The position numbers and the translations under genes were made by a program. Below, piece by piece: positions 5,945-30,995 of a stretch of 64,000 nucleotides of DNA (positions within the stretch are counted from its first letter, which is position 1; each line of letters starts with the position of its first letter). Under the pieces are notes generated by a model that was given only the letters and a program-made list of their open reading frames with translations, was not told the DNA's origin and searched no databases. This stretch comes from a virus. The stretch covers positions 1-64,000 of IMG/VR virus record IMGVR_UViG_3300045978_000284; one strand, 5' to 3'.

Positions 5945-6696
5945 GCCCCGAGGATACGCGCCCCTTCCTGGCCGCCCTAAGCCGAGCCGCCGAATATTTC
6001 AACGAGACCCTGAGTGAGAGCAAGGGCCAGATCTACTTCGAGGGGCTCAAGCTCCTGCCCCTGGAGGCGGTGCTCCGCGGGCTCGCCAAGGCGATGGAGG
6101 GCGCGCGCTTCATGCCGAAGATCGTGGACGTGGTCGAGGCCATTGAGGGCACCCGCGCGGACCGCGCGGAGCAGGCCTGGACGCGCTTCACGACGGCCGC
6201 GGCGTCCGCTGTGGGGGCCTACCAGTCCGTGGACTTCGAGGACCCGGCCCTGCACGCCACCATCCGCGAGATGGGAGGCTGGGCCTACAGCCGCGCCATC
6301 CTCGACGTGGACGAGGACCAGCTGGGGTTCGTGAAGCGTGACTTCCTCAGGCACTACGACCGCTTCCTGCGCCTTGGGACGGGCGACAACGGCCATCCGC
6401 TCCTGGGAATCCAGGCCATCGAGAACCGGCTGACCCGCCCGTCCTGGGACCACGCGCTCGATCACGTGGACGAGGTGCTCCAGATCGGCCCCGGCGGCTC
6501 CCTGGCCCTCCCGCCGGTGCCAGCCATGGCCGCGCTGCCGCCGGCGCTCGACCCGGAGCCGGAGGCGCCCCTGACGCCCGAGGAGAACCAGGCGCGCCTC
6601 CGGGAGCTGATCGCCGGGCTCGCCAAGCCATTGCCCGGCGACAAGATGCGGAGGCTTGACACGCGGAACGGTAACGACGTATCGTCAGCGCCATGA
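5941..6696 (+). CDS. probable replication partner protein, DUF6475-like (251 aa)
   Basis: It overlaps the initiator gene by ATGA. The N-terminal 110 residues are helical, with PLEAVLRGLAKAMEGARFMPKIVDVVEAIEG, a pattern I associate with phage proteins of the DUF6475 type found beside replication initiators. A Trp-rich middle part (IREMGGWAYSRAIL) and a Pro-rich tail follow. By position it is the analogue of lambda P (helicase loader), but no AAA+ motif is present, so this is inference. Its last bases contain the promoter at 6656. Confidence 0.6.
   Translation: MSPEDTRPFLAALSRAAEYFNETLSESKGQIYFEGLKLLPLEAVLRGLAKAMEGARFMPKIVDVVEAIEGTRADRAEQAWTRFTTAAASAVGAYQSVDFEDPALHATIREMGGWAYSRAILDVDEDQLGFVKRDFLRHYDRFLRLGTGDNGHPLLGIQAIENRLTRPSWDHALDHVDEVLQIGPGGSLALPPVPAMAALPPALDPEPEAPLTPEENQARLRELIAGLAKPLPGDKMRRLDTRNGNDVSSAP
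6656..6685 (+). promoter_or_regulatory. sigma70-like promoter inside the end of the replication partner gene
   Basis: TTGACA (6656-6661, perfect consensus), 18 bases, TATCGT (6680-6685). The -10 overlaps an imperfect palindrome, GACGTATCGTC. It lies just upstream of the short relay ORF and the small genes preceding the tRNA and the ATPase, and is probably an internal operon promoter. Confidence 0.5.
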
Positions 6697-6740: not shown

Positions 6741-7000
6741 AGCGTCTCACCTTCAAGGCCGGCGAGAAGCCCGAGGTCCAGGAGCTGCACATCCGCAACG
6801 CCCCCCGGGCGCTGGTCACGCGACTCCGGGTGCTCCTGGCCATGACCCCGACGGGGACGTCCTACGAGGCGGTCGTCATCGGCGCCCTGACGATCGGCCT
6901 GGCCTCGCTGGAGGCCCTGGCGCGGCCCCTGGATGGGGTCAGGATCGACCCACGCCCCGCGGACGCCAAGGCGATCGCGAAGAGTCTGGGGCTCGTATGA
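6737..7000 (+). CDS. small hypothetical protein (87 aa)
   Basis: ATG 6737 overlaps the relay ORF stop. The product reads MKRLTFKAGEKPEVQELHIRN, then a region resembling a ribbon-helix-helix or small antitoxin-like fold (ALVTRLRVLLAMTPTGTSYEA, then a helix). A DNA-binding role is possible, but no family is certain. It ends in ATGA with the next gene. Confidence 0.5.
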   Translation: MKRLTFKAGEKPEVQELHIRNAPRALVTRLRVLLAMTPTGTSYEAVVIGALTIGLASLEALARPLDGVRIDPRPADAKAIAKSLGLV

Positions 7001-7311
7001 ACTACCAGGCCGTGCACGAGCTGGCCGCGATGGAGGCCGCGTTCGCCGTGCTTCGTGTTCACTACCGAGACCTGGATCGGCTCGGCAACGCGATCCTGAC
7101 CACGCCCTCGACCATGATCCGCAAGGCCATGGGCGTGATGCAGCTCACCGAAGGTGATAGGCTGCGGCGCATCCGGGATTCGTCTAGAGTCCCAGCCGCA
7201 AGGCTGGGCGGTAGGACGCCGGGCCCCTCAGCCCGGAAACTGACGTTCGATCCGTCGATCCCGGACCAACCCCACCCACTCGCCAAACCATCCACAGGAG
7301 ACAACCGATGA
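6997..7311 (+). CDS. hypothetical protein whose 3' half overlaps a tRNA-like gene (104 aa)
   Basis: The start overlaps the upstream stop and the TGA overlaps the next ATG. The first 53 codons have the high third-position GC of the neighbours and encode a helical segment (ELAAMEAAFAVLRVHYRDL). From about 7157 codon use becomes irregular, and bases 7173-7268 fold as a tRNA. Either the gene was extended through an inserted tRNA, or only its 5' part is a remnant of a real gene. No family is recognised. Confidence 0.4.
   Translation: MNYQAVHELAAMEAAFAVLRVHYRDLDRLGNAILTTPSTMIRKAMGVMQLTEGDRLRRIRDSSRVPAARLGGRTPGPSARKLTFDPSIPDQPHPLAKPSTGDNR
7173..7268 (+). tRNA. tRNA-Glu-like (CTC) with an inserted hairpin in the D-loop and an 8-nt anticodon loop
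   Basis: Acceptor CCGGGAT (7173-7179) pairs with ATCCCGG (7258-7264), followed by A73 and an encoded CCA (7266-7268). The D-stem GTCT/GGAC (7182-7185, 7214-7217) encloses a 28-base loop containing a perfect hairpin, CCCAGCC-GCAA-GGCTGGG (7191-7208). Removing 21 bases leaves an ordinary D-loop (AGCGGTA). The anticodon stem CCGGG/CCCGG (7219-7223, 7232-7236) has an 8-base loop, CCCCTCAG, with CTC before A. The T-arm is TGACG-TTCGATC-CGTCG (7241-7257). The D-arm and position-8/9 sequence TCGTCTAG match bacterial tRNA-Glu. Confidence 0.75.
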
Positions 7312-7475
7312 AGGCAGCGAAGAAGGCCAAGCCGAACAAGCGCTGGGAAGTCACCATGATCCTGGAGGATCAGGAGCCGCGCCCGCCGGCGACCCGCCGC
7401 GGTGACATCAAGTCCTCGCTGGAGGAGGAGGCCCGAGGGATGGGTCTCGACGTCAAGAAGTCCACGGTGAAGTGA
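7308..7475 (+). CDS. small basic protein (55 aa)
   Basis: ATG 7308 is preceded by ACAGGAGACAACCG, a good ribosome site, and overlaps the previous stop. The N-terminus is Lys-rich (MKAAKKAKPNKRWEV), followed by a short strand and an acidic helix (SSLEEEARGMGLDV). No family is recognised. Its stop shares a base with the next mini-ORF. Confidence 0.55.
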   Translation: MKAAKKAKPNKRWEVTMILEDQEPRPPATRRGDIKSSLEEEARGMGLDVKKSTVK

Positions 7476-10221: not shown

Positions 10222-10581
10222 ATGCGCAGCGCGATGCGGCCCGCGGCGATCCACGAGACGGCGCTTGGCGTGAGTCTGCCGGCCGGGCAGTGGGTCACGG
10301 TCCTGACGGTCGATCTCTCGGCCCATAGTCACGCCTCCTGGAGCGCCCGGAACGTGGGAGCGACCGTCATCACCGACTCGAAGCTCGAAGTGAGCCCGGT
10401 GGCCATGGACGCCCCGGACGAGGAGTGGTTCGATCATCCGCAGCAGGCCGCGAACCTGAGCAACATCGCGGTCGGTGCGTGGGGGACCGGATCGGGCTCG
10501 GAGGTCTCGTACCGCTACCATCGACTGCGGATGCGGTCGACGAGCGGCTCGATCGTCAACGCGTATGTGGACGCTCGGTGA
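10222..10581 (+). CDS. hypothetical protein (119 aa)
   Basis: A clear GAGGAGA ribosome site precedes ATG 10222. The product is beta-rich (WVTVLTVDLSAHSHASW, then ATVITDSKLEVSPVAMD) with repeated Ser/Thr and no Cys; it may be a small beta-sandwich. It lies next to the methyltransferase gene. No family is recognised. Confidence 0.55.
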   Translation: MRSAMRPAAIHETALGVSLPAGQWVTVLTVDLSAHSHASWSARNVGATVITDSKLEVSPVAMDAPDEEWFDHPQQAANLSNIAVGAWGTGSGSEVSYRYHRLRMRSTSGSIVNAYVDAR

Positions 10582-10597
10582 AGGACTCGTTGTTTCC

Positions 10598-12847
10598 ATG
10601 ACCACCCAGGATCGCGGCTCGATCTTCCTCGGCATCACCCCGGGCCCGGCACGGGAGTACCTGCTGAGACTCTTCGAGCGGGCTCGAGACCGCTACACCC
10701 GGGTCATCGTCCCCTGCGTCGGCCGCTTCGCCGGCCCGCTGATGGCCATTCGCGCCGGCTACCGACCCGACCAAGTCGAGGCCTCGGACATCTCGCTCTT
10801 CTCCAGCCTGATCGGCTACCTGGCCTCGGACCAGGACGTGCGCCAGCTCTACGTGCGCTCGACGGTGCCCGTGCCCGGCCTGACGGCGATCCTCGAGACC
10901 TCGGACGGCCTCGACTACGCGGCCGCGGCCATGGTGTGCCTCAAGATCGCGACCTTCAAGTCCAACAATGCCTACCAGGCGATGGTGCACGACGATCTCC
11001 GGCGCGACTGGGAGCGCCACTACGCCAAGGCCAGGAAGAACCTCCAGACGCTGGTGGCCGAGCTGAAGGGCATCACCTACCGGATGGCCGATCTCTTCGA
11101 CGAGATCGACCAGGCGCGCGAGGACGCGAGCACCATCGTCTTCTGTAACCCGCCCGCGTATAAATGCTTGGCGCCATCGCATCGCATCCTGACTGCCGAC
11201 CTGCGCTGGGTGCCCGCCGGCGATCTCCGCGTGGGGGATCAGCTGCTCGCGTGCGATGAGCGGCGGTCCTCGGGCCACCGGGCCCGCCACTTCCAGTGGT
11301 CGGTGGTGACGCGCTCGGAGCCTGGCCGAGCACAATGCGTTCGCGTCCACCTGGCCAACGGCGACACGATCACCTGCACAGCGGACCATCCCTGGCTCGG
11401 CAGCTGGCTCGTGCCAGGGCACCCCTTCACGTCACCGCGGTGGATCGAGGCGCAGGTTCTCGCCTCGGACCAGCTCTTCGCGGGCACGAGTAAGTACGGC
11501 ACCTATGTCGTCAAGCCCCTCGACGTCTGGGGCGAGCTTCATGGTTATGACGACGGCTGGCTGGCTGGGATGTACGACGGCGAGGGGCACGTGTCGCTGG
11601 GCACCGACCACGCTCAGGTGATGCTCTCCCAGAAGCCGGGCCAGCTGCTGGACCGGGCTCTCGAGCTGCTACGCGCCAGAGGCTTTTCCCCGGGCGTGCA
11701 ACTGGCGGAGAAGGCCCACGTCGCAGGGATCCATTCCCTGAACGAGACGCTGCGCTTGCTCGGCACCTTGCGCCCGGGTCGCCTCCTCGCCAATCTCCGC
11801 GCGAAGGACATCGGCCGCCAGACGCTGCGCATCCGCCGTTCTCACCCCCTCGTGCAGGTGGTCCAGGTAGAGCACATCGGCGAGCAGGACATCCAGTCGA
11901 TCACGACGTCGAGCGGCACCTACTTCGGCGAGGGCTACGCTCACCACAATTCCGGCTACTCCAAGCAGTTCGATACCCACGGGCTCCTGGAGTGGGCCGA
12001 GCCCGCGGTCGAGCAGTTCGATTCTTCGGGCGTGGCGCACGAGCGCATTCAGTACATGGCGGAGCGCTCGAAGGGGCTCGTGCTCTACTGGCGGATCAGC
12101 CAGATGATCGCGAACGACGTCTCCCGGGCCGTGTGGGCCTTGACCAAGCCAAACTTCACCGAGTACCTGCTCTGCAACCGACCGGAGGAGGCGCGCGCGC
12201 TGTCGGGCGGCACGGTGGTGTCGATGCCGAAGCTCGCCCTGTCCTCCCCCAACCATCCGGTGTGGGGCACCGCCGATGACCGGATCACGGCGGCGACGTC
12301 GGTGGCGATCGTCCAGACCGATCGGGAGACGGCGCTCTACTACCGGGATCTCTTCGCCCATGGCCTCGGGGCGACGGATGCCCGGCAGTTCTATCTCGTG
12401 CTCCTCGACAACAAGGTGTTCGGCGCGTTCGCGCTCCACCCGGAAAGTTTCTTCCGTGGCGAGCCCTATAAGTGGCAGGCCGAGGGCGACCCCGATCTCT
12501 ACCTCTTCGAGAACTTCGGCTTCAACGCCTCCAGCCCGCACTACTCGCGGCTGAACCGGCTGCTCATGATGTTCATCACGAGCGAGGGGTTCCGGGACTT
12601 CTGGCTGGCGCGCCGGCAGACGTGGTCCTTGTGGGACCCGGCGGGGATCACCACGGTGTGCCTGGCCAAGTACCCCGAGGTCAAGGTGAACCGGGGGATC
12701 CTCCAGCTCAAGACGCGCGAGCAGATGGAGGACGGCCGCTACCACCTGCACTACGCGACCAAGTGGCACCCGGGCTCGCTCCACGACCAGCTGGTGCGCT
12801 GGGTCGCCAAGCACGGCGCGATGAGCCTCGAACCGCAAGAGACATGA
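10598..12847 (+). CDS. DNA adenine methyltransferase / Mom-like DNA modification protein, interrupted by an intein
   Basis: The 749-residue precursor contains a 262-residue intein (residues 190-451); the spliced protein would be 487 residues. The N-extein has a SAM-binding-like segment (VIVPCVGRFAGP, then EASDIS). It ends NPPAYK, and the C-extein resumes SGYSKQFD, so the intein sits in the NPPY-type catalytic motif IV. The C-terminal domain (VFGAFALHPESFF, then YLFENFGFNASS and LNRLLMMFITSEGF) resembles GNAT-fold Mom proteins and phage putative antirestriction adenine methyltransferases. Such proteins modify phage DNA against restriction. The start ATG has only a distant GAAGGA upstream. Confidence 0.7.
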   Translation: MTTQDRGSIFLGITPGPAREYLLRLFERARDRYTRVIVPCVGRFAGPLMAIRAGYRPDQVEASDISLFSSLIGYLASDQDVRQLYVRSTVPVPGLTAILETSDGLDYAAAAMVCLKIATFKSNNAYQAMVHDDLRRDWERHYAKARKNLQTLVAELKGITYRMADLFDEIDQAREDASTIVFCNPPAYKCLAPSHRILTADLRWVPAGDLRVGDQLLACDERRSSGHRARHFQWSVVTRSEPGRAQCVRVHLANGDTITCTADHPWLGSWLVPGHPFTSPRWIEAQVLASDQLFAGTSKYGTYVVKPLDVWGELHGYDDGWLAGMYDGEGHVSLGTDHAQVMLSQKPGQLLDRALELLRARGFSPGVQLAEKAHVAGIHSLNETLRLLGTLRPGRLLANLRAKDIGRQTLRIRRSHPLVQVVQVEHIGEQDIQSITTSSGTYFGEGYAHHNSGYSKQFDTHGLLEWAEPAVEQFDSSGVAHERIQYMAERSKGLVLYWRISQMIANDVSRAVWALTKPNFTEYLLCNRPEEARALSGGTVVSMPKLALSSPNHPVWGTADDRITAATSVAIVQTDRETALYYRDLFAHGLGATDARQFYLVLLDNKVFGAFALHPESFFRGEPYKWQAEGDPDLYLFENFGFNASSPHYSRLNRLLMMFITSEGFRDFWLARRQTWSLWDPAGITTVCLAKYPEVKVNRGILQLKTREQMEDGRYHLHYATKWHPGSLHDQLVRWVAKHGAMSLEPQET
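11165..11950 (+). mobile_element. intein with a LAGLIDADG-type motif in the methyltransferase
   Basis: It begins at Cys1 (CLAPSHRILT, splicing block A) and has TADH in block B and GWLAGMYDGEG, a LAGLIDADG homing-endonuclease motif. It ends YAHHN followed by Ser as the +1 nucleophile. The length is 262 residues. Only one dodecapeptide motif is evident, so endonuclease activity is uncertain. The insertion point lies within the catalytic motif, the usual conserved target of inteins. Confidence 0.85.
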
Positions 12848-18683: not shown

Positions 18684-19467
18684 GAGCCAGCCCGAATACG
18701 CCATGGAGGAGTCCGGGCCCACGGCGCTGCCGGCCGATGTGCTGACCGGCCCCCGAGGAAAAGGCGAGGATGCGCACGCTAAACGCCTGCAAATACAGAT
18801 CGAAACGCGCGAGCAGAATCAGCGCAAGTTTGGCTGGAAGTACCCTTACGTTCGCTGGCCCAAACCGCCGAAGAAAGAACCCAAGAGAGGACGGCGCAGC
18901 CAGTTCGATGAGTTTGTCGCTCAGGAACTCATAGCATCGCGCTCGGTTGGCTTGCCGTTCGGCGACTGCGCGAGGATCGTCGGCATCTCGCGTCGGACGC
19001 TGATGGGCTGGATGACGAAGGGCCGGCGCACGCAAGAGGAGCCGCTCTACTCGTTCCAGCTCGCCATGCGCGGCGCCTTCGCCAAGTGGAAGCGCTCGCT
19101 CCTGGCTGCGGCCACGCGCGAGGCGCTCGCGGAGGGCGGCGGTAAACTCGCGCTGGAGATGCTGGCGCGCATTGATGCCCAGCATTTCGGCCGGAAAGAC
19201 GCGCTCCGGGTGCAGCCGGTGAGCCCGGAGGATGATGTATCATGGCCGGCGCCACCGGCGCTGGGGGAGGTGATCGAGGCCAGTGTCGACGACGGAAGCA
19301 GCGGCAGTCTCCCGGCCATCGTTGAGCAGCATGCGCAGGCGTTTGGCGACCACGATGCCCGCGAACTCGCTAGCGCTCTGGCTCTGGTGTCGAAACGTAA
19401 TGGGGTTCAGAATCCCCCTGGCCCCGATCTGCCCGGACCACGTATCACCATTCGCCGCACTGAGTGA
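18676..19467 (+). CDS. terminase small subunit-like DNA-binding protein
   Basis: ATG 18676 (GTG 18673 is also possible). Residues about 75-120 form a helix-turn-helix (DCARIVGISRRTLMGWMT), followed by helices (FQLAMRGAFAKWKRSLLA) like those of TerS proteins. This gene lies immediately before the large subunit. Small subunits bind the packaging site and regulate the motor. The frame stays open to 19467, overlapping TerL by 185 bases; the last ~60 residues may be a disordered tail or a non-essential extension. Confidence 0.65.
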   Translation: MAESQPEYAMEESGPTALPADVLTGPRGKGEDAHAKRLQIQIETREQNQRKFGWKYPYVRWPKPPKKEPKRGRRSQFDEFVAQELIASRSVGLPFGDCARIVGISRRTLMGWMTKGRRTQEEPLYSFQLAMRGAFAKWKRSLLAAATREALAEGGGKLALEMLARIDAQHFGRKDALRVQPVSPEDDVSWPAPPALGEVIEASVDDGSSGSLPAIVEQHAQAFGDHDARELASALALVSKRNGVQNPPGPDLPGPRITIRRTE

Positions 19468-21934
19468 CGCCTTCTTTCGTGGGCACCGAACGGCGGTCTG
19501 GATCGCCAACCGCTCGGGGGCCAAGACGCGGATGTTCTCGATCCTGCACCACCTCAACAGCGTCTTTCATCGCTCGCACCGGACGGTGCACGGGGCGACG
19601 ATCGAGCGCCAGGCCGATCTCTGCAAGGAGTACCTGGACGAGTACCTCGACGAGGGCACGCCGCTCTTCGACGTCATGGGGCGCAAGCGGCTCACGGGGC
19701 GCACGCGCCGCTACAAGACGCGCTCGACCATCCGCTTCCTGCCCGGCACGCTCAAGAGTTTCTCGGGACCGAAGGGGCAGACGGTGGTGATCGACGAGGC
19801 GGACGCGATGGAGTGGCGGAACATCCAGCAGGCGCTGGGCATGCTGCACTCCGAGCCGGACATGGAGTCGATGCTGATCTTCGGGTCGACTCGGGAGCGG
19901 CCCTACGGGGCGATGCAGCGCCTGGTCGACAAGTCGCTGCGCCCGGCGGGCGGCGAGGACATCGTGGTCCACCCGTGGATCTGGTGCATTTTCGAGGTGA
20001 TGCAGCCCTGCCGGACGCGCTCGAAGGCGTGTCCGCTCTGGGAGCGCTGCGAGCACGGGGCCCTCTGCCAGAACGAGCTGGGGTTCGTCCCGGTCTCGGA
20101 CGTGATCCAGAAGGCCGCCCTGGCAGACGACGAGATCTGGGACACGCAGTACCGGTGTTGTCCATGGGAACAGCGGGTGACGACAAATGAGGGCGACATC
20201 GAGATCGGTCGCATCGTCGACGCTCGCCTGCCGGTGAAGGTCAAGTCGCTGGACCTCATGACTGGCAGGGCGGTTTGGAAGCCGGTCACGGGATGGTTCT
20301 ATAACGGGCCGCACGAGGGCGAGTGGTTGCGGGTTCACACGTCTCCCCGGACGACGCACCCTCGCTCGCGCCAGACCGTGACAACTCCTGACCATCTCTG
20401 GATCCTCGCGGACGGCTCGAAGTGCCGGGCCGACGAACTGCGCGAGGGTGATCAGGTTTTGCTCGAATCCCCCGTCCTGACGCCCCGGCAGGAGCAGATT
20501 GTCCGTGGAATGCTCCTGGGCGACGGCCATATCCGGGGAGGTCGCCAGCCGAACGCGCTGTCCTTTGCTCAGCATGTCGATTCTCCCCTCACGGACTGGC
20601 TCAAGGAGGCTCTGGCGCCGCTCCTGTTCTCGCAGGATCGCCGATACAAGAACACGAGGTTCATCGAAACGGCGACGTGGCCGGTCTTTGCTCGCTGGCG
20701 TCAGGTGTTCTACCGTCACCCGCTTCGCGGACACAAGTGCACGCCGTTAAAGGAAGTTGCTCAGGCGGACGAGTTGGCGCTGGCAATCTGGTACCTCAGC
20801 GACGGCGATACCGCCCAGCGTCCCGGCGATCTATTTCTCTCACTCGGTGTGCGAGCGACGCTCGACGAGGCCGCTGTGATCGCCGAATGCCTCCGCCAGC
20901 GCTGGGGCCTTGATGCTGTCGCGCGTCGCGTCAGAGCCCGAGAAAGCGGAATTGCCTTGCGCCGTGCCTCCTGGGAGATCCTCACATCGCTCGTGGCGCC
21001 TTACCTCGAACTGGGGCTCGGTCGCAAGCTGTGGGTGGCCAAGCCCGAGCTGGGGGAGGGATATGAAGGGGCGGTGACGGTACGAGTCGCCAAGATCGAG
21101 CGATTTGTCCCGCCGCGGGCGGACCGCCGCCGCCGTCGCGACGTGGGACGCTACGACATCGAAGTAGCGGACACGCACACCTTCTTCGCCGGCGGAGTCC
21201 TCATCTCGAATTGCAAACGACCCGCGCGCCACGGGCTGGTGTACGACACCTTCGACGAGTCGGTGCACATCAACGACCAGCTCGCCGAGTACCGTCCGCT
21301 CTACCCGGTGGAGATCAGCTGCGACTGGGGCTACGGGGATCCGGCGGCGGTGCTGTTCTTCCAGCGCGATCGGGGGCGTCGCTGGCAGTTCGACGAGATC
21401 TACGGCTCGCGGATGAGCCTGCCGACCCTGTGGGGCAAGGTCCTGGAGGTGCGCCAGCGCTACGGGGGCTTTCCCATCATGCAGGGCTGGGGCGATCCGG
21501 AAGGCGCCCAGGAGAACCTGTTCTTCCGGGCCCAGCTGCGCCAGCTCTGCGGCGGCCGCTTCCTCTCCAGCTATCCCAGCCTCGAACCCCACCAGCGGGC
21601 GGCCGGGCTCGTCAAGGAGCGCATCAAGGCGGTGCGCCTGGAGCTGCGGGACGGCCAGCACCGTCCCTGCTTTCACATCCACTCCCGCTGCCGGTGGACG
21701 ATCGCCGAGTTCAAGACGTACCACCTCGGCGAGCGCGGGGAAGATCTCGAGGGGCGGATGATCTACGACGACACCCCGGTTGACCAGGACAACCACGCCA
21801 TGGACTCGATTGCCCGCTATGTGTGGGCGACCCGCTACCGGGCGGGCGTCATGGCCTCCATCGCCGAGATTCATCCGACCCAGCGCACCCCGGCCAGTGG
21901 CCCGCCGATGCGGCCCATGACGGCGCGGTGGTAG
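19283..21934 (+). CDS. terminase large subunit (TerL), interrupted by an intein
   Basis: The 883-residue precursor splices to about 531 residues. The ATPase part has CPDHVSPFAALSDAFF, a Walker A variant ANRSGAKT, and Walker B VVIDEADAM, with coupling segment FGSTRERPYGA. The nuclease part (RNase H fold) has ISCDWGYGDPA, GWGDPEGAQEN and DNHAMDSIA, carrying the expected Asp residues. The intein lies in the junction after DTQYR, and the extein resumes CKRPARHG. The start is GTG 19283, preceded by GAGGCCA and GGAGG. TerL pumps and cuts DNA at the portal vertex. Confidence 0.85.
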   Translation: MSTTEAAAVSRPSLSSMRRRLATTMPANSLALWLWCRNVMGFRIPLAPICPDHVSPFAALSDAFFRGHRTAVWIANRSGAKTRMFSILHHLNSVFHRSHRTVHGATIERQADLCKEYLDEYLDEGTPLFDVMGRKRLTGRTRRYKTRSTIRFLPGTLKSFSGPKGQTVVIDEADAMEWRNIQQALGMLHSEPDMESMLIFGSTRERPYGAMQRLVDKSLRPAGGEDIVVHPWIWCIFEVMQPCRTRSKACPLWERCEHGALCQNELGFVPVSDVIQKAALADDEIWDTQYRCCPWEQRVTTNEGDIEIGRIVDARLPVKVKSLDLMTGRAVWKPVTGWFYNGPHEGEWLRVHTSPRTTHPRSRQTVTTPDHLWILADGSKCRADELREGDQVLLESPVLTPRQEQIVRGMLLGDGHIRGGRQPNALSFAQHVDSPLTDWLKEALAPLLFSQDRRYKNTRFIETATWPVFARWRQVFYRHPLRGHKCTPLKEVAQADELALAIWYLSDGDTAQRPGDLFLSLGVRATLDEAAVIAECLRQRWGLDAVARRVRARESGIALRRASWEILTSLVAPYLELGLGRKLWVAKPELGEGYEGAVTVRVAKIERFVPPRADRRRRRDVGRYDIEVADTHTFFAGGVLISNCKRPARHGLVYDTFDESVHINDQLAEYRPLYPVEISCDWGYGDPAAVLFFQRDRGRRWQFDEIYGSRMSLPTLWGKVLEVRQRYGGFPIMQGWGDPEGAQENLFFRAQLRQLCGGRFLSSYPSLEPHQRAAGLVKERIKAVRLELRDGQHRPCFHIHSRCRWTIAEFKTYHLGERGEDLEGRMIYDDTPVDQDNHAMDSIARYVWATRYRAGVMASIAEIHPTQRTPASGPPMRPMTARW
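20156..21211 (+). mobile_element. intein with LAGLIDADG endonuclease in TerL
   Basis: The 352-residue insert starts at Cys1 (CCPWEQRVTTNEG aligns with splicing block A, placing Val at position 8) and has TPDH in block B. It has two dodecapeptide motifs, GMLLGDGH and AIWYLSDGD, and ends with block F/G YDIEVADTHTFFAGG…ISN before Cys+1. With two motifs it could encode an active homing endonuclease. Confidence 0.9.
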
Positions 21935-27221: not shown

Positions 27222-30200
27222 ATGATCGGGGACTGGATCAAGCGCATCACGGGCCGGCACGAGCCGACCGGACGGCCGGTGATCCAGATCGTTCCGAGCG
27301 GTCAGCCGCCCACTCCGCTCCCGGGCGCCGCGACGGGCTACATCCCTCGGACCGCGGTCCCGTCGGAAGGTGGTCCACTCGCGGTCGAGAAGGAGCAGGT
27401 TCGTCTCTTCGCCGAGCGTCGCGAAGAGCTGAAGCGGTTCGGGCGCTACGAGCTCGGGGTGACGGGCACGCCGGTCTATGGCGGTCAGATCCTGACCGAG
27501 CCGAACCCGGACATGGCGTTCCCGAAGAGCCTGGCCACGTTCGACAAGATGCGTCGGACCGATGGCCAGGTGCACGCGGCGCTCCTGATCATCATGCTGC
27601 CGATCCTCTCGCTCGACTGGGCCATCGAGCCCTACGCGGAAATCGACGAATCGACCAGCACGCCAAAGGAGGTCACGCCCCTCGATCGCCAGGCGGCGGA
27701 CTTCATCCGGAAGGATCTCCTGGAAGGCTTCCAGCCCTTCAAGCACGTGCTCCGCGAGGTGCTCGGGATGATCTGGGCCGGCTTCTGGATCCTCGAAAAG
27801 ATCTACGAGGTCCGGGAGGACGGCCTGGTGCATCTGCACAAGCTCGGCACGCGCCTGCCCCAGACGATCTTCCGGTGGGGCGTGCGGCGCAACGGCGAGC
27901 TGGAGTTCGCCGTCCAGCGCGGCGTCGATCCCTCGACGGGCGGGACGATCGAGCAGACGCTCCCGGCCGAGGACATTCTGATCTTCGTCAACAACCAGGA
28001 AGGGGCGGACTGGCAGGGCCAGTCGGTGCTGCGCTCGGCCTACAAGCACTTCGAGATGAAGGACTGGCTCTACCGGATCGGCGTGATCAACGTCGAGCGC
28101 GGCGGAGGGTTCCCGGTGCTCTCGCTCCCGGAGGGGATGAACGACCAGGACCTCCAGGCCGCCCGGGACGTGGGCGAATCGATCCACGTGCACGAGCGGG
28201 CCTACGTGCTGGAGCCCCACGGGTGGCGCTTCCGGCTGGAGGGGACGACCTCGCGCATCGGCGACGTCATGGCCCAGGTCGAGCACCACGACCGGATGAT
28301 CTCGGTGAACGTGCTCGCGCAGTTCCTGGCGGCGACCGGCGGCGAGCTGGCGGGCCGCGGGTCGACGGCCGAGTACATGGACATGTTCCTGATGGCCGAG
28401 GAGGTGGTCATCGCGAACATCGAAGAGGTGTTCAACTCCGGCCTCGTCCGCCAGCTGGTGGACTACAACTTCCGGGTCGAGCCCGGGCACTACCCGAAGC
28501 TCAAGGCGCAGAACGTCCGCGGGTTCAACGTGCGGCGCATGGGCATCGTGCTGCGCACCATGGTCGATGGCCGCCTGATCACCCCGGACGAGCCCCTCGA
28601 AGAGTTCCTGCGCGAGGCGATGGGCTTGCCGCGAGCCGATCTCGATACCCGGCGCGACCCGATGGCCCAGATGATGGCCGCCGGTGGCCAGGGAGGGGAC
28701 CTCGGGGGCCTCGGGGCTCTCCTGGGGCTGGGTGGCGGTCCAAAGAAGCCAGGCGGTCCGGGTGGGCCCCCGACGCCGGGTGCCCCCACGCAGTCGAAGC
28801 TGGGCAAGCCAGGGCCGGAGACGGGTGTGCCGACCCAGGCCGCCAAGGCTGATCCCGTGTCGCCGATCCCGGGCGAGAATCCACTGCTGCCCTCCGACAA
28901 CCCGAAATGGCAGCAGAAGGAGGCGCTGCTCGCGGAGCGTGCGGAGGACGACGAGTGCATCTGGCGCACGATCGGCGGCAACCCGGTCTGCATCAAGGCT
29001 GGGCATGGCGGACACCGTGAGGGCCAGCGACCCTATCGCCACTCCTCCGGGCAAACTCCCGTGTCGAGCTTCGCGAGCGACCAGCCAAAGGGCCGCGCAG
29101 GACAGGACGAACGGGAGAACCTGCGCTGGCTGACCAGGCCCAGCGACTATGACATCGGTCGCACGTCGGACCGCTTTACCGTCGAGCACGGTCCGTTGCG
29201 CGTGGATGGCGTCATTGGTGACCGGGGCGGCACGCGGACGGCGGACATCAGGGTGTCAAACATGGAAAAGGTCGCGCCGTTCCCGTCCGGCGCCGAGCTG
29301 CCAGATCAATCCATGCCGCCAGTGGCGGCGAGCACCGTCGATCCTGGGAGCATGAGGGCGCTCCTGCGCGAGGTGCAGGCCGAGCTGGTCAAGCGCGGCG
29401 TCTCCCAGGCGATCTTGCCGCAGCCGGATAAGTCCTGGCGCGTCCCGCGCAAGATCCTTGATCGCCTCGGGGCCACGAAGGTCGACATCCCATTCCGCAC
29501 CCCTTCGCCCAAGGAGAAAGCCATGCGCCGGGACCTGGGAATCCCGGCCCCGACAGACGCCGACCGGGGCTCGCTCGTCAAGACCGAGTCCATGAAGGCC
29601 CTCGCTGAGATCTCCGATGAGGACTTCGCGCTGGGCGAGCTGGGCGAGTTCGTCAGCTCGACGGAGCTGCGCATCCCGGAGTGGGAGACCGAGCTGGCGC
29701 GCTACGCGGCCGCAATCCCCGCCGCGGATCTCGCCCAGGACGGTGTGGTCGGAAAGCACCACGTCACCCTGAAGTACGGGCTGGCCACGTCGAACGCGGA
29801 GGACCTGCGTCGGCTCGCGGCATCCCTGCCGACCATGACGCTGCGCCTGGGGGCCACGATGGTCTTCCCCAAGCCCGAGGCGGACATCCTGGTGATGCGG
29901 GTGTTCGGCGAGGGCCTGGAGGAGGCGCATGAGCAGATCCAGCGGTACACGCCCTGCCAGGAGGACGAGCAGCCGTACCTGCCGCACGTGACCCTGGCGT
30001 ATCTCAAGCCAGGCGCCGGCGTTCGCTACGCAGGAGATCCGGCGCTCGCGGGTCGGGCGGCGATCGCCACGGAGCTGTGGTTCCGCCCCTCGACGACCTC
30101 GAAGCTCCCGGACCAGGCGCTCCCGCTGGGCGTCGAGGACATGCAGCTCGCCGGGATCGAGGAGGCCTGGGCCAAGCCGCTGATGATCTCGCGCCCGCTC

Positions 30201-30995
30201 CGCCCACTCGAGCGCGCGGTCAATCTCCACGAGATCGACCGGCGCTGCAAGCTGACGGCGACCCGCATGCTCCAGACGGTGCGCCCGATCGGCCGCCAGA
30301 TGGCCGAGGCGATGGTGAAGGCCTGCCGGGAGTGCGGCGAGGACAACATCCAGTCCCTCATGGACTACCGGGTGCCGCTGCAGGGCAAGATGGCCTCGGC
30401 GTGCAAGACCTACCTCGCGGACATGTTCGACTTCGGGCAGGCCCAGGTGCGCGAAGAGCTGGCCCGGCAGCACCGCCAAGCGCAGAACCCGGAGAGCGAT
30501 CTCCTGCTGGCGGAGCCGCCGCGGCCCATCGACAACGAGAAGCGCGCCCGGGACGTCATCAACCTGAAGGCCGACCTGCTCTCGCGGCGCTGGGCGGAGC
30601 GCCTCAAGGAATCCGCCATGAACGTGATGCTGGCGGCCGCGCGCAGCGGGATGCCCCCGGGCGAGGCCGCGCAGCGCATCCAGGAGGCCGCGGACGAGAT
30701 CACCGATCGCTCGTCGCGCCAGCTCGTGATGAACACGCTCGGGGACGCCTTCGGCCTCGGGCGCCAGGTGGAGGCCCACCGGCAGCGCGACTACATCGGC
30801 GAGGCCGAGTACTCCGCGATCCTCGACGAGAACACCTGTGACCCGTGCCGTCAGCTCGACGGACGCACGGGGCAGCTGGACGAGCCGGCGATGCAGGTGC
30901 CGAACCCGAACTGCGCCGGCGAGCGCTACGGCTCGAGCTGTAGGTGCGTTCTCGTTTTTAGATATCGTGGACCATCCGGGGGCAGTGGGTCATGA
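27222..30995 (+). CDS. portal protein (DUF935 type) fused to a Cys/His module, a 2H phosphoesterase and a MuF domain
   Basis: The 1257-residue protein has a Mu gp29/DUF935 portal core at about 60-480 (LTEPNPDMAFPKSL, then GGGFPVLSLPEG and LAGRGSTAEYMDMF). A Gly/Pro-rich linker follows, then a Cys/His module (C579, C590, H595, H598). A domain at about 600-780 shares LLRE…AILP and ILDRL with the protein at 39451. Next comes a two-histidine phosphoesterase (H847-V-T, H922-V-T) similar to 2'-5' ligase/Acb1 anti-CBASS enzymes. Finally there is a MuF-type region (about 1016-1250) with YSAILDENTCDPC. It would sit at the portal vertex. The 3' end overlaps an antisense gene by 70 bases. Confidence 0.8.
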   Translation: MIGDWIKRITGRHEPTGRPVIQIVPSGQPPTPLPGAATGYIPRTAVPSEGGPLAVEKEQVRLFAERREELKRFGRYELGVTGTPVYGGQILTEPNPDMAFPKSLATFDKMRRTDGQVHAALLIIMLPILSLDWAIEPYAEIDESTSTPKEVTPLDRQAADFIRKDLLEGFQPFKHVLREVLGMIWAGFWILEKIYEVREDGLVHLHKLGTRLPQTIFRWGVRRNGELEFAVQRGVDPSTGGTIEQTLPAEDILIFVNNQEGADWQGQSVLRSAYKHFEMKDWLYRIGVINVERGGGFPVLSLPEGMNDQDLQAARDVGESIHVHERAYVLEPHGWRFRLEGTTSRIGDVMAQVEHHDRMISVNVLAQFLAATGGELAGRGSTAEYMDMFLMAEEVVIANIEEVFNSGLVRQLVDYNFRVEPGHYPKLKAQNVRGFNVRRMGIVLRTMVDGRLITPDEPLEEFLREAMGLPRADLDTRRDPMAQMMAAGGQGGDLGGLGALLGLGGGPKKPGGPGGPPTPGAPTQSKLGKPGPETGVPTQAAKADPVSPIPGENPLLPSDNPKWQQKEALLAERAEDDECIWRTIGGNPVCIKAGHGGHREGQRPYRHSSGQTPVSSFASDQPKGRAGQDERENLRWLTRPSDYDIGRTSDRFTVEHGPLRVDGVIGDRGGTRTADIRVSNMEKVAPFPSGAELPDQSMPPVAASTVDPGSMRALLREVQAELVKRGVSQAILPQPDKSWRVPRKILDRLGATKVDIPFRTPSPKEKAMRRDLGIPAPTDADRGSLVKTESMKALAEISDEDFALGELGEFVSSTELRIPEWETELARYAAAIPAADLAQDGVVGKHHVTLKYGLATSNAEDLRRLAASLPTMTLRLGATMVFPKPEADILVMRVFGEGLEEAHEQIQRYTPCQEDEQPYLPHVTLAYLKPGAGVRYAGDPALAGRAAIATELWFRPSTTSKLPDQALPLGVEDMQLAGIEEAWAKPLMISRPLRPLERAVNLHEIDRRCKLTATRMLQTVRPIGRQMAEAMVKACRECGEDNIQSLMDYRVPLQGKMASACKTYLADMFDFGQAQVREELARQHRQAQNPESDLLLAEPPRPIDNEKRARDVINLKADLLSRRWAERLKESAMNVMLAAARSGMPPGEAAQRIQEAADEITDRSSRQLVMNTLGDAFGLGRQVEAHRQRDYIGEAEYSAILDENTCDPCRQLDGRTGQLDEPAMQVPNPNCAGERYGSSCRCVLVFRYRGPSGGSGS

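What the first reader, a model, noticed from the sequence alone, without database searches (positions are those of the whole stretch)
7173..7268. tRNA-Glu-like gene with a 21-base hairpin inserted in the D-loop and an expanded anticodon loop
All helices of a tRNA with encoded CCA are present, and the body matches tRNA-Glu. However, a perfect 7-bp hairpin with a GCAA tetraloop interrupts the D-loop, and the anticodon loop is 8 bases (CCCCTCAG). Bacterial tRNAs are not known to me to carry D-loop inserts like this. Possible roles: resistance to host anticodon or tRNA-cleaving nucleases, a decoy, a removable intron-like insert, or a +1 frameshift suppressor reading a four-base codon.
Basis: seen in the sequence. 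Interest (0 to 1): 0.78.

Follow-up and report, generated by a model that had tools for sequence, protein, structure and literature searches.

The report
Phage five-armed tRNA-Glu-like RNA
A bacterial virus carries a glutamate transfer-RNA gene that keeps every helix of a normal tRNA but has an extra hairpin arm in its D-loop and a malformed anticodon loop, and similar oddities turn up in unrelated large phages but not in bacteria, so it is probably a virus-adapted tRNA or tRNA mimic rather than an ordinary tRNA.

Summary
At 7173-7268 of a 108-kb phage record lies a complete tRNA-Glu-shaped sequence. It has a 7/7 acceptor stem, D, anticodon and T stems, T-loop TTCGATC and encoded CCA. Its 28-nt D-loop contains a perfect 7-bp GCAA hairpin, and its anticodon loop is CCCCUCAG (8 nt, or 6 nt closed by C-G). 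ARAGORN and Rfam miss it. A covariance model built only from ordinary bacterial tRNA-Glu finds it at E=8e-10, and a cloverleaf descriptor finds no match in 200 shuffled strands.

It is not unique. D-loop inserts occur in Glu-like tRNAs of several unrelated phage lineages, including next to GOLLD RNAs and in 636- and 735-kb phages. A pattern scan of 85,000 prokaryote genomes found no bacterial D-loop hairpin. The closest analogue (LR756504, 308513-308601) has both anomalies and belongs to a nine-copy family beside a normal tRNA-Glu. In eight of those copies the acceptor stem covaries.

Best reading: a tRNA-Glu derivative kept for its tRNA shape, with ordinary decoding impaired or lost. The likeliest role is resisting or decoying host tRNA-targeting defences; this role is inferred, not shown. 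An intron or a general four-base decoder is unlikely. A pseudogene remains possible.

The parts
7173..7179 (+). acceptor stem, 5' strand CCGGGAT
   Evidence: pairs 7/7 with 7258-7264
7182..7185 (+). D stem 5' strand GTCT (G10 U11 C12 U13)
   Evidence: pairs with GGAC 7214-7217
7186..7213 (+). 28-nt D-loop AGAGTCCCAGCCGCAAGGCTGGGCGGTA
   Evidence: normal bacterial tRNA-Glu D-loops in alignment A2 are 8-9 nt
7189..7209 (+). 21-nt insert between positions 16 and 18 (alpha region), leaving A14 G15 A16 and G18 G19 U20 A21 in place
   Evidence: cmsearch alignment shows the extra bases here
7191..7208 (+). perfect 7-bp hairpin with GCAA tetraloop, the fifth arm
   Evidence: pair probabilities 0.97-1.00; only such + strand hairpin in 108 kb
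7214..7217 (+). D stem 3' strand GGAC
7219..7223 (+). anticodon stem 5' strand CCGGG
7224..7231 (+). anticodon loop CCCCTCAG (8 nt, or 6 nt closed by C7224-G7231); CUC at 7227-7229, no U33
7232..7236 (+). anticodon stem 3' strand CCCGG
7237..7240 (+). 4-nt variable loop AAAC (A46, no base 47)
7241..7257 (+). T arm TGACG-TTCGATC-CGTCG
7258..7264 (+). acceptor stem 3' strand ATCCCGG
7265..7268 (+). discriminator A73 and encoded CCA
6656..6685 (+). sigma-70-like promoter match TTGACA-18-TATCGT upstream
   Evidence: 10 of 12 matches, shuffles mean 0.0; consensus match only
6997..7311 (+). 104-aa ORF that reads in frame through the tRNA-like gene; coding signature stops near 7170
   Evidence: codon-position GC 0.67/0.41/0.86 before the gene, 0.61/0.67/0.70 across it
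7308..7475 (+). next small ORF, start overlaps the stop of the previous one (ATGA), 39 nt after CCA

Best explanation
It is a phage tRNA-Glu derivative with a fifth arm. SHOWN: the sequence can form a full cloverleaf plus a 7-bp GCAA hairpin in the alpha region of the D-loop. The positions for the tRNA elbow are all present (U8-A14, G15-C48, G18-U55, G19-C56, U54-A58), as are an encoded CCA and the GluRS D-helix elements. The anticodon arm is 18 nt instead of 17 and lacks U33. Analogous RNAs recur in unrelated phages. INFERRED: it is transcribed with the operon, cut out by RNase P and kept as a stable tRNA-shaped RNA with the hairpin protruding from the elbow, and it does not decode GAG like an ordinary tRNA. 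MOST LIKELY ROLE (speculative): it stands in for, or acts as bait for, host enzymes that attack tRNAs. Both altered places, the anticodon loop and the elbow, are surfaces that such enzymes touch, while the acceptor/T/elbow core that other factors read is kept.
For: All 21 cloverleaf stem pairs are standard, although the nearest of 26 bacterial tRNA-Glu differs on both sides at 9 pairs. CM hit E=7.8e-10. D-loop inserts recur in phage Glu-like tRNAs: L062/L070/L074/L080, L068, L073, L076, L088 and W02:308513, with L072 and L066 weaker. Most of these also have non-standard anticodon loops (4, 5, 6 or 8 nt). The anticodon hairpin C[NNYUCR]G is shared with nine paralogs in LR756504, which also has a normal tRNA-Glu, with L072 and L084, and with the cultured phage BDU-MI-1 (L083). 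In eight LR756504 paralogs the acceptor stem is 100% paired with three covarying pairs, and the anticodon stem is 75% paired. Phage tRNAs with changed anticodon loops evading nucleases are known (PMC10264068), phage tRNAs evading retrons too (PMC11555353), and the anticodon nuclease RloC preferred tRNA-Glu when overexpressed (PMC2610378).
Against: No expression, charging or infection data. No host or host nuclease is known. No close relative shows that this particular insert is conserved. Unlike the anticodon-less forms, it still shows CUC-A, so some decoding may remain. The T stem is poorly paired in the LR756504 paralogs, so part of that family may be decaying.
Confidence: 0.4

Rival explanations
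1. A functional decoding tRNA-Glu(CUC) that tolerates a hairpin in the variable alpha region and an extra loop base; it simply supplies Glu-tRNA for the very common GAG codon.
For: All tertiary positions and GluRS D-helix elements are kept, CUC-A is present, CCA is encoded; GAG is 50 per 1000 codons in the phage. A cultured phage has an annotated tRNA-Glu with a similar loop.
Against: No U33 and an 18-nt anticodon arm; the C-G-closed 6-nt loop is favoured by energy. None of the bacterial tRNA-Glu in A2 has such a loop.
Confidence: 0.22
2. A tRNA pseudogene: a tRNA-Glu gene disrupted by a 21-nt insertion and a base insertion, without function.
For: Two departures from the norm in one gene; similar decayed copies sit beside intact ones in other phages (L068 13002-13075); no relative conserves this insert.
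Against: Every stem pair is intact and 9 of 21 pairs differ on both sides from the nearest sampled tRNA-Glu without one broken pair. The same two departures recur together in an unrelated phage (W02:308513).
Confidence: 0.2
3. A processing signal: the tRNA shape recruits RNase P and 3' processing enzymes to cut the polycistronic transcript (tRNA punctuation), so the anticodon and D-loop are free to change.
For: It lies between two ORFs, 39 nt before the next start codon. GOLLD-linked analogues lie about 145 nt after the GOLLD match. The acceptor stem is the best kept helix.
Against: Cutting would leave the upstream ORF without a stop codon. It would not explain the elaborate D-arm hairpin or the shared C[NNYUCR]G hairpin.
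Confidence: 0.1
4. A +1 frameshift suppressor that reads a four-base codon such as GAGG with its 8-nt loop.
For: The 8-nt loop is the hallmark of known +1 suppressor tRNAs (own knowledge).
Against: 188 of 537 in-frame GAG codons in 19 phage ORFs are followed by G, in 16 of 19 ORFs, so efficient reading would wreck phage proteins. C7224-G7231 can close the loop to 6 nt.
Confidence: 0.05
5. The hairpin is an intron-like insert that is removed from the RNA.
For: Archaeal tRNAs have D-loop introns; one such candidate was recovered by the same scan (L057).
Against: Only 21 nt, a closed perfect hairpin with no bulge-helix-bulge visible; no Rfam intron match; encoded CCA; portal relatives are phages of bacteria.
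Confidence: 0.03

Closest known systems
Bacterial tRNA-Glu
   Same: Cloverleaf, D-helix identity elements, missing base 47, T arm, CCA
   Different: 28-nt D-loop with a hairpin; 18-nt anticodon arm without U33
Glu-like paralog in huge phage LR756504.1, 308513-308601
   Same: D-loop hairpin plus C[NNYUCA]G anticodon hairpin
   Different: Hairpin lies after G18G19 (beta region), AT-rich, no encoded CCA, weaker T stem
Phage tRNAs with altered anticodon loops that evade anticodon nucleases (PMC10264068)
   Same: Phage tRNA with changed anticodon loop
   Different: Those are mutations in ordinary cloverleafs; the held text of the paper has no mention of D-loop inserts (term search)
GOLLD-associated phage tRNAs (PMC12286853, PMC6582537)
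   Same: The L062 family of D-loop-insert Glu-like tRNAs lies beside GOLLD RNA
   Different: No GOLLD or ROOL in this phage
Archaeal tRNAs with D-loop introns
   Same: Extra sequence in the D-loop (L057)
   Different: Here a short closed hairpin in a phage of probably bacterial host

Membership tests
tRNA-Glu | cloverleaf with 7/4-5/5/5 bp stems, T-loop TTCRANY | tested here: met
tRNA-Glu | 7-nt anticodon loop with U33 and YUC anticodon | tested here: not met
   loop CCCCTCAG, C instead of U33
tRNA-Glu | D-loop of normal size | tested here: not met
   28 nt against 8-9 nt in A2
tRNA-Glu | charging with glutamate | not testable with these tools
   identity elements U11-A24, U13-G22, A46, no base 47 are present (sequence; own knowledge of their role)
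+1 frameshift suppressor tRNA | 8-nt anticodon loop | tested here: inconclusive
   8 nt by count, but it can close to 6 nt
+1 frameshift suppressor tRNA | reads a four-base codon | not testable with these tools
   indirect argument against from 188 GAG-G sites
intron-containing tRNA | group I/II or bulge-helix-bulge intron | tested here: not met
   no Rfam intron match; fold shows a closed hairpin
tRNA-Sec / allo-tRNA | long D stem, acceptor-T branch of 8/5 or 9/3 type, long variable arm | tested here: not met
   4-bp D stem, 7/5 branch, 4-nt variable loop
GOLLD/ROOL-linked RNA | adjacent GOLLD or ROOL RNA | tested here: not met
   none in the 108-kb record
anticodon-nuclease-evading phage tRNA | resists cleavage by a host tRNase | not testable with these tools
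   no host or nuclease known

The most novel reading that the evidence does not exclude
Large phages carry an unrecognised class of tRNA-Glu-shaped RNAs, often with an extra D-loop arm and a 4- to 8-nt anticodon hairpin that cannot decode normally. They work outside translation as baits or shields against tRNA-targeting defence, or as RNA scaffolds. Annotation tools miss or mislabel them.
Probability: 0.3. Interest if true: 0.85.

Novelty: new variant of a known kind. Interest (0 to 1): 0.62.

Why it matters
[quoted passage not shown] A phage tRNA with a fifth arm, with parallels in unrelated phages, would widen what counts as a tRNA. It also gives a concrete system for asking why phages carry tRNAs: decoding, nuclease evasion, or tRNA-shaped bait. 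Standard tools miss this gene and several analogues, so the class is probably under-counted.

Tried and rejected
(1) Close relatives: pattern and BLAST searches found none, and the related phages reached through neighbouring genes gave no tRNA by ARAGORN in the stretches fetched. (2) Pattern scan of genome contigs: 36 stretches, nearly all an ordinary tRNA-Glu with a chance GTCTAG upstream. Exceptions: N-masked L030, L038 and L040; a partial internal duplication in Pseudomonas brassicacearum L033; partial duplication L055; archaeal D-loop insert L057. (3) GOLLD/ROOL link for this phage: absent. (4) Hairpin as a repeated mobile element: only one copy in the window. (5) Four-base decoding: in-frame GAGG too common. 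(6) Closest host tRNA by BLAST: only short weak matches in 249 genomes. (7) L058 and L075 looked like D-inserts by pattern but are ordinary or ambiguous. (8) Literature searches for phage tRNAs with D-loop inserts returned nothing relevant.

Full report
OBSERVATION. The window is the first 64 kb of a 108,431-base virus record. At 7173-7268 (+) the sequence reads as a complete tRNA: acceptor CCGGGAT/ATCCCGG, U8 C9, D stem GTCT/GGAC, G26, anticodon stem CCGGG/CCCGG, variable loop AAAC, T arm TGACG-TTCGATC-CGTCG, A73 and CCA. The D-loop is 28 nt and contains CCCAGCC-GCAA-GGCTGGG. The anticodon loop is CCCCUCAG. ARAGORN, Rfam at gathering threshold and a relaxed local Rfam scan miss it.

IS IT CHANCE? 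No. A cloverleaf descriptor run on both strands of the whole record returns only tRNA-His (4144), this gene and tRNA-Pro (70833), and nothing in 200 shuffled strands. The fold energy z-score is -3.7. A covariance model (R1) built from 24 ordinary bacterial tRNA-Glu, none with an insert, gives 44.1 bits, E=7.8e-10. Its alignment shows two departures: a 23-nt stretch where the model has 4 positions in the D-loop, and one extra base in the anticodon loop. Of 26 bacterial tRNA-Glu compared, the nearest differs on both sides at 9 of 21 stem pairs, and all 21 pairs remain standard in the phage gene. Most of that divergence may predate the insert.

ANATOMY. Reading by standard tRNA position, the insert (21 nt, 7189-7209) sits between base 16 and G18, in the alpha region where D-loop length normally varies. 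A14, G15, G18, G19 and all T-loop partners are present, so the elbow can form with the hairpin pointing out (inference). U11-A24, U13-G22, A46 and the missing base 47 are features that E. coli GluRS reads (own knowledge). The anticodon arm is 18 nt instead of 17. It can be drawn as an 8-nt loop or as a 6-bp stem with a 6-nt loop CCCUCA closed by C7224-G7231; the second is 3.4 kcal/mol better. There is no U33. The gene lies among + strand phage genes: ParB-like, helicase, replication initiator, a putative ATPase-like protein (my reading of the sequence, no family match), Mu-type portal. A good sigma-70-like site lies 0.5 kb upstream. The ORF 6997-7311 is open straight through the gene, but its coding signature ends near 7170.

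RELATIVES OF THE FEATURE. No close relative of the gene was found. I then searched for the feature itself. In 84,980 prokaryote genomes a tRNA-Glu pattern with a 12-42-nt D-loop gap gave 36 stretches, none a bacterial tRNA with an inserted D-loop hairpin. One is an archaeal D-loop insert and one a partial duplication in P. brassicacearum. As a control, the same pattern with normal spacing hits 75 of 150 genomes of one phylum, so the scan had power, though only for this D-arm consensus. In viral contigs similar patterns recovered real D-loop-insert Glu-like tRNAs. L062/L070/L074/L080 have 41-42-nt D-loops. L068 has 27 nt with hairpin TCCACTTTAAAGTGGA. L076 has 20 nt with a normal UUC loop. L073 has 17 nt. 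L072 (37 nt) and L066 (UUCG hairpin) are weaker because their T or acceptor stems are imperfect. Model R1 scores the L062 family, L068, L073 and L076 at 51-64 bits. The D-arm pattern of other isotypes also gave inserted forms: L059, L060, L061.

GOLLD LINK. The L062-family genes in the three loci that hold enough upstream sequence (L062, L070, L080) follow a GOLLD RNA (RF02032, 282-294 bits) by about 145 nt. In this family two T-stem pairs change on both sides while all 25 pairs stay standard; with four sequences this is modest evidence. GOLLD RNAs are known to lie near or enclose tRNA genes (PMC12286853, PMC6582537). The window phage has no GOLLD or ROOL.

HUGE PHAGES. In LR756501.1 (735 kb) three neighbouring Glu-like genes have 4-nt anticodon loops, one with a UUCG hairpin in its D-loop. 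In LR756504.1 (636 kb) there is a normal tRNA-Glu (221649-221722) and, in addition, nine Glu-like paralogs, eight of them in four pairs, all with an anticodon hairpin C[UUUUCA]G or C[UAUUCA]G. Eight aligned copies show acceptor stems 100% paired with three pairs changed on both sides, an invariant C-G closing the 6-nt loop, covariation in the anticodon stem, and a poor T stem; overall covariation exceeds all 500 shuffles and all slid controls. The ninth, 308513-308601, also has a D-loop hairpin. It is the closest analogue of the window gene: both departures, different sequence, hairpin in the beta rather than the alpha region. The C[NNYUCR]G anticodon hairpin occurs without a D-loop insert in viral contig L084 and in the cultured Bradyrhizobium phage BDU-MI-1 (L083). 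So the two departures are separable, and each recurs.

MECHANISM. What is shown is structure, recurrence and, in analogous families, compensatory change. What is inferred is that the RNA is made, matured by RNase P and kept. What is proposed is that its anticodon loop no longer decodes normally and that the tRNA shape serves another purpose. In most D-loop-insert Glu-like genes the anticodon loop is abnormal (4, 5, 6 or 8 nt; L076 is the clear exception, and the L062 family has 7 nt but with the UUC shifted), and in LR756504 the family exists beside a normal tRNA-Glu. Phage tRNAs are known to escape host tRNases by anticodon-loop changes (PMC10264068) and to counter retron effectors (PMC11555353), and the anticodon nuclease RloC favoured tRNA-Glu when overexpressed (PMC2610378). 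A shield or bait against tRNA-targeting defence is therefore the role I find most likely, at about 0.4. A working tRNA-Glu(CUC), a pseudogene and a processing signal are the main rivals.

LIMITS. Pattern scans see only one D-arm consensus. IMG/VR contigs are mostly metagenomic. The same phage was seen in a second sample (L018, 100% over the portal end), but the stretch fetched does not reach the gene. Host is unknown; the best-scoring portal relatives listed are phages of Arthrobacter and Gordonia. No expression data exist.

Noticed in passing
L089/L111/L113/L116/L120/L121 (LR756504.1): A 636-kb phage carries nine Glu-like tRNA paralogs, mostly in pairs (GGCGTGT type plus GGCCC type), besides a normal tRNA-Glu; 6-nt anticodon loops.
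   Followed up: yes
L088 (LR756501.1 228317-229200): Three Glu-like tRNA genes with 4-nt anticodon loops (UUAU, UUAC, UGUA), so no anticodon; one with a UUCG hairpin in the D-loop.
   Followed up: partly
L068 12407-13075 (-): Tandem array of six Glu-derived tRNA-like genes with varied D-loops, most with short anticodon loops, and one with extra hairpins in the variable region.
   Followed up: partly
L085 311-435 and L091 (mycobacteriophages Bactobuster, Leogania): Unannotated tRNA-like RNA upstream of the lysin A gene with normal acceptor, D and T arms but an anticodon arm of about 60 nt; paired changes between the two phages.
   Followed up: partly
L086, L093 (Enterococcus Saphexavirus), L087 (Lactococcus phage LW81): Unannotated tRNA-like sequences with expanded anticodon arms.
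   Followed up: no
L061 7953-8052, 8271-8441, 12830-12990: A 140-kb phage, close to its tmRNA gene, has tRNA-like genes of 101, 172 and 162 nt, one with a D-loop insert and an 8-9-bp anticodon stem.
   Followed up: no
L070 4384-4486; L104 903-1030: Phage tRNAs with inserts in the anticodon arm (104 and 129 nt); the second is conserved in two phages (G001, G008).
   Followed up: no
L033 267-376: Pseudomonas brassicacearum tRNA-Glu whose D-loop holds a partial internal duplication including an anticodon arm.
   Followed up: no
window 6997-7311: A 104-aa ORF runs in frame through the tRNA-like gene and its stop overlaps the next start (ATGA); RNase P cutting would leave it without a stop.
   Followed up: partly
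window 27222-30995: One 1257-aa ORF combines Mu-type portal, 2'-5' RNA ligase-like and Mu F-like domains.
   Followed up: no
window 10475-12847 and 19283-21934: Intein-like sequence within a DAM-like/GNAT protein, and a LAGLIDADG domain inside the large terminase.
   Followed up: no
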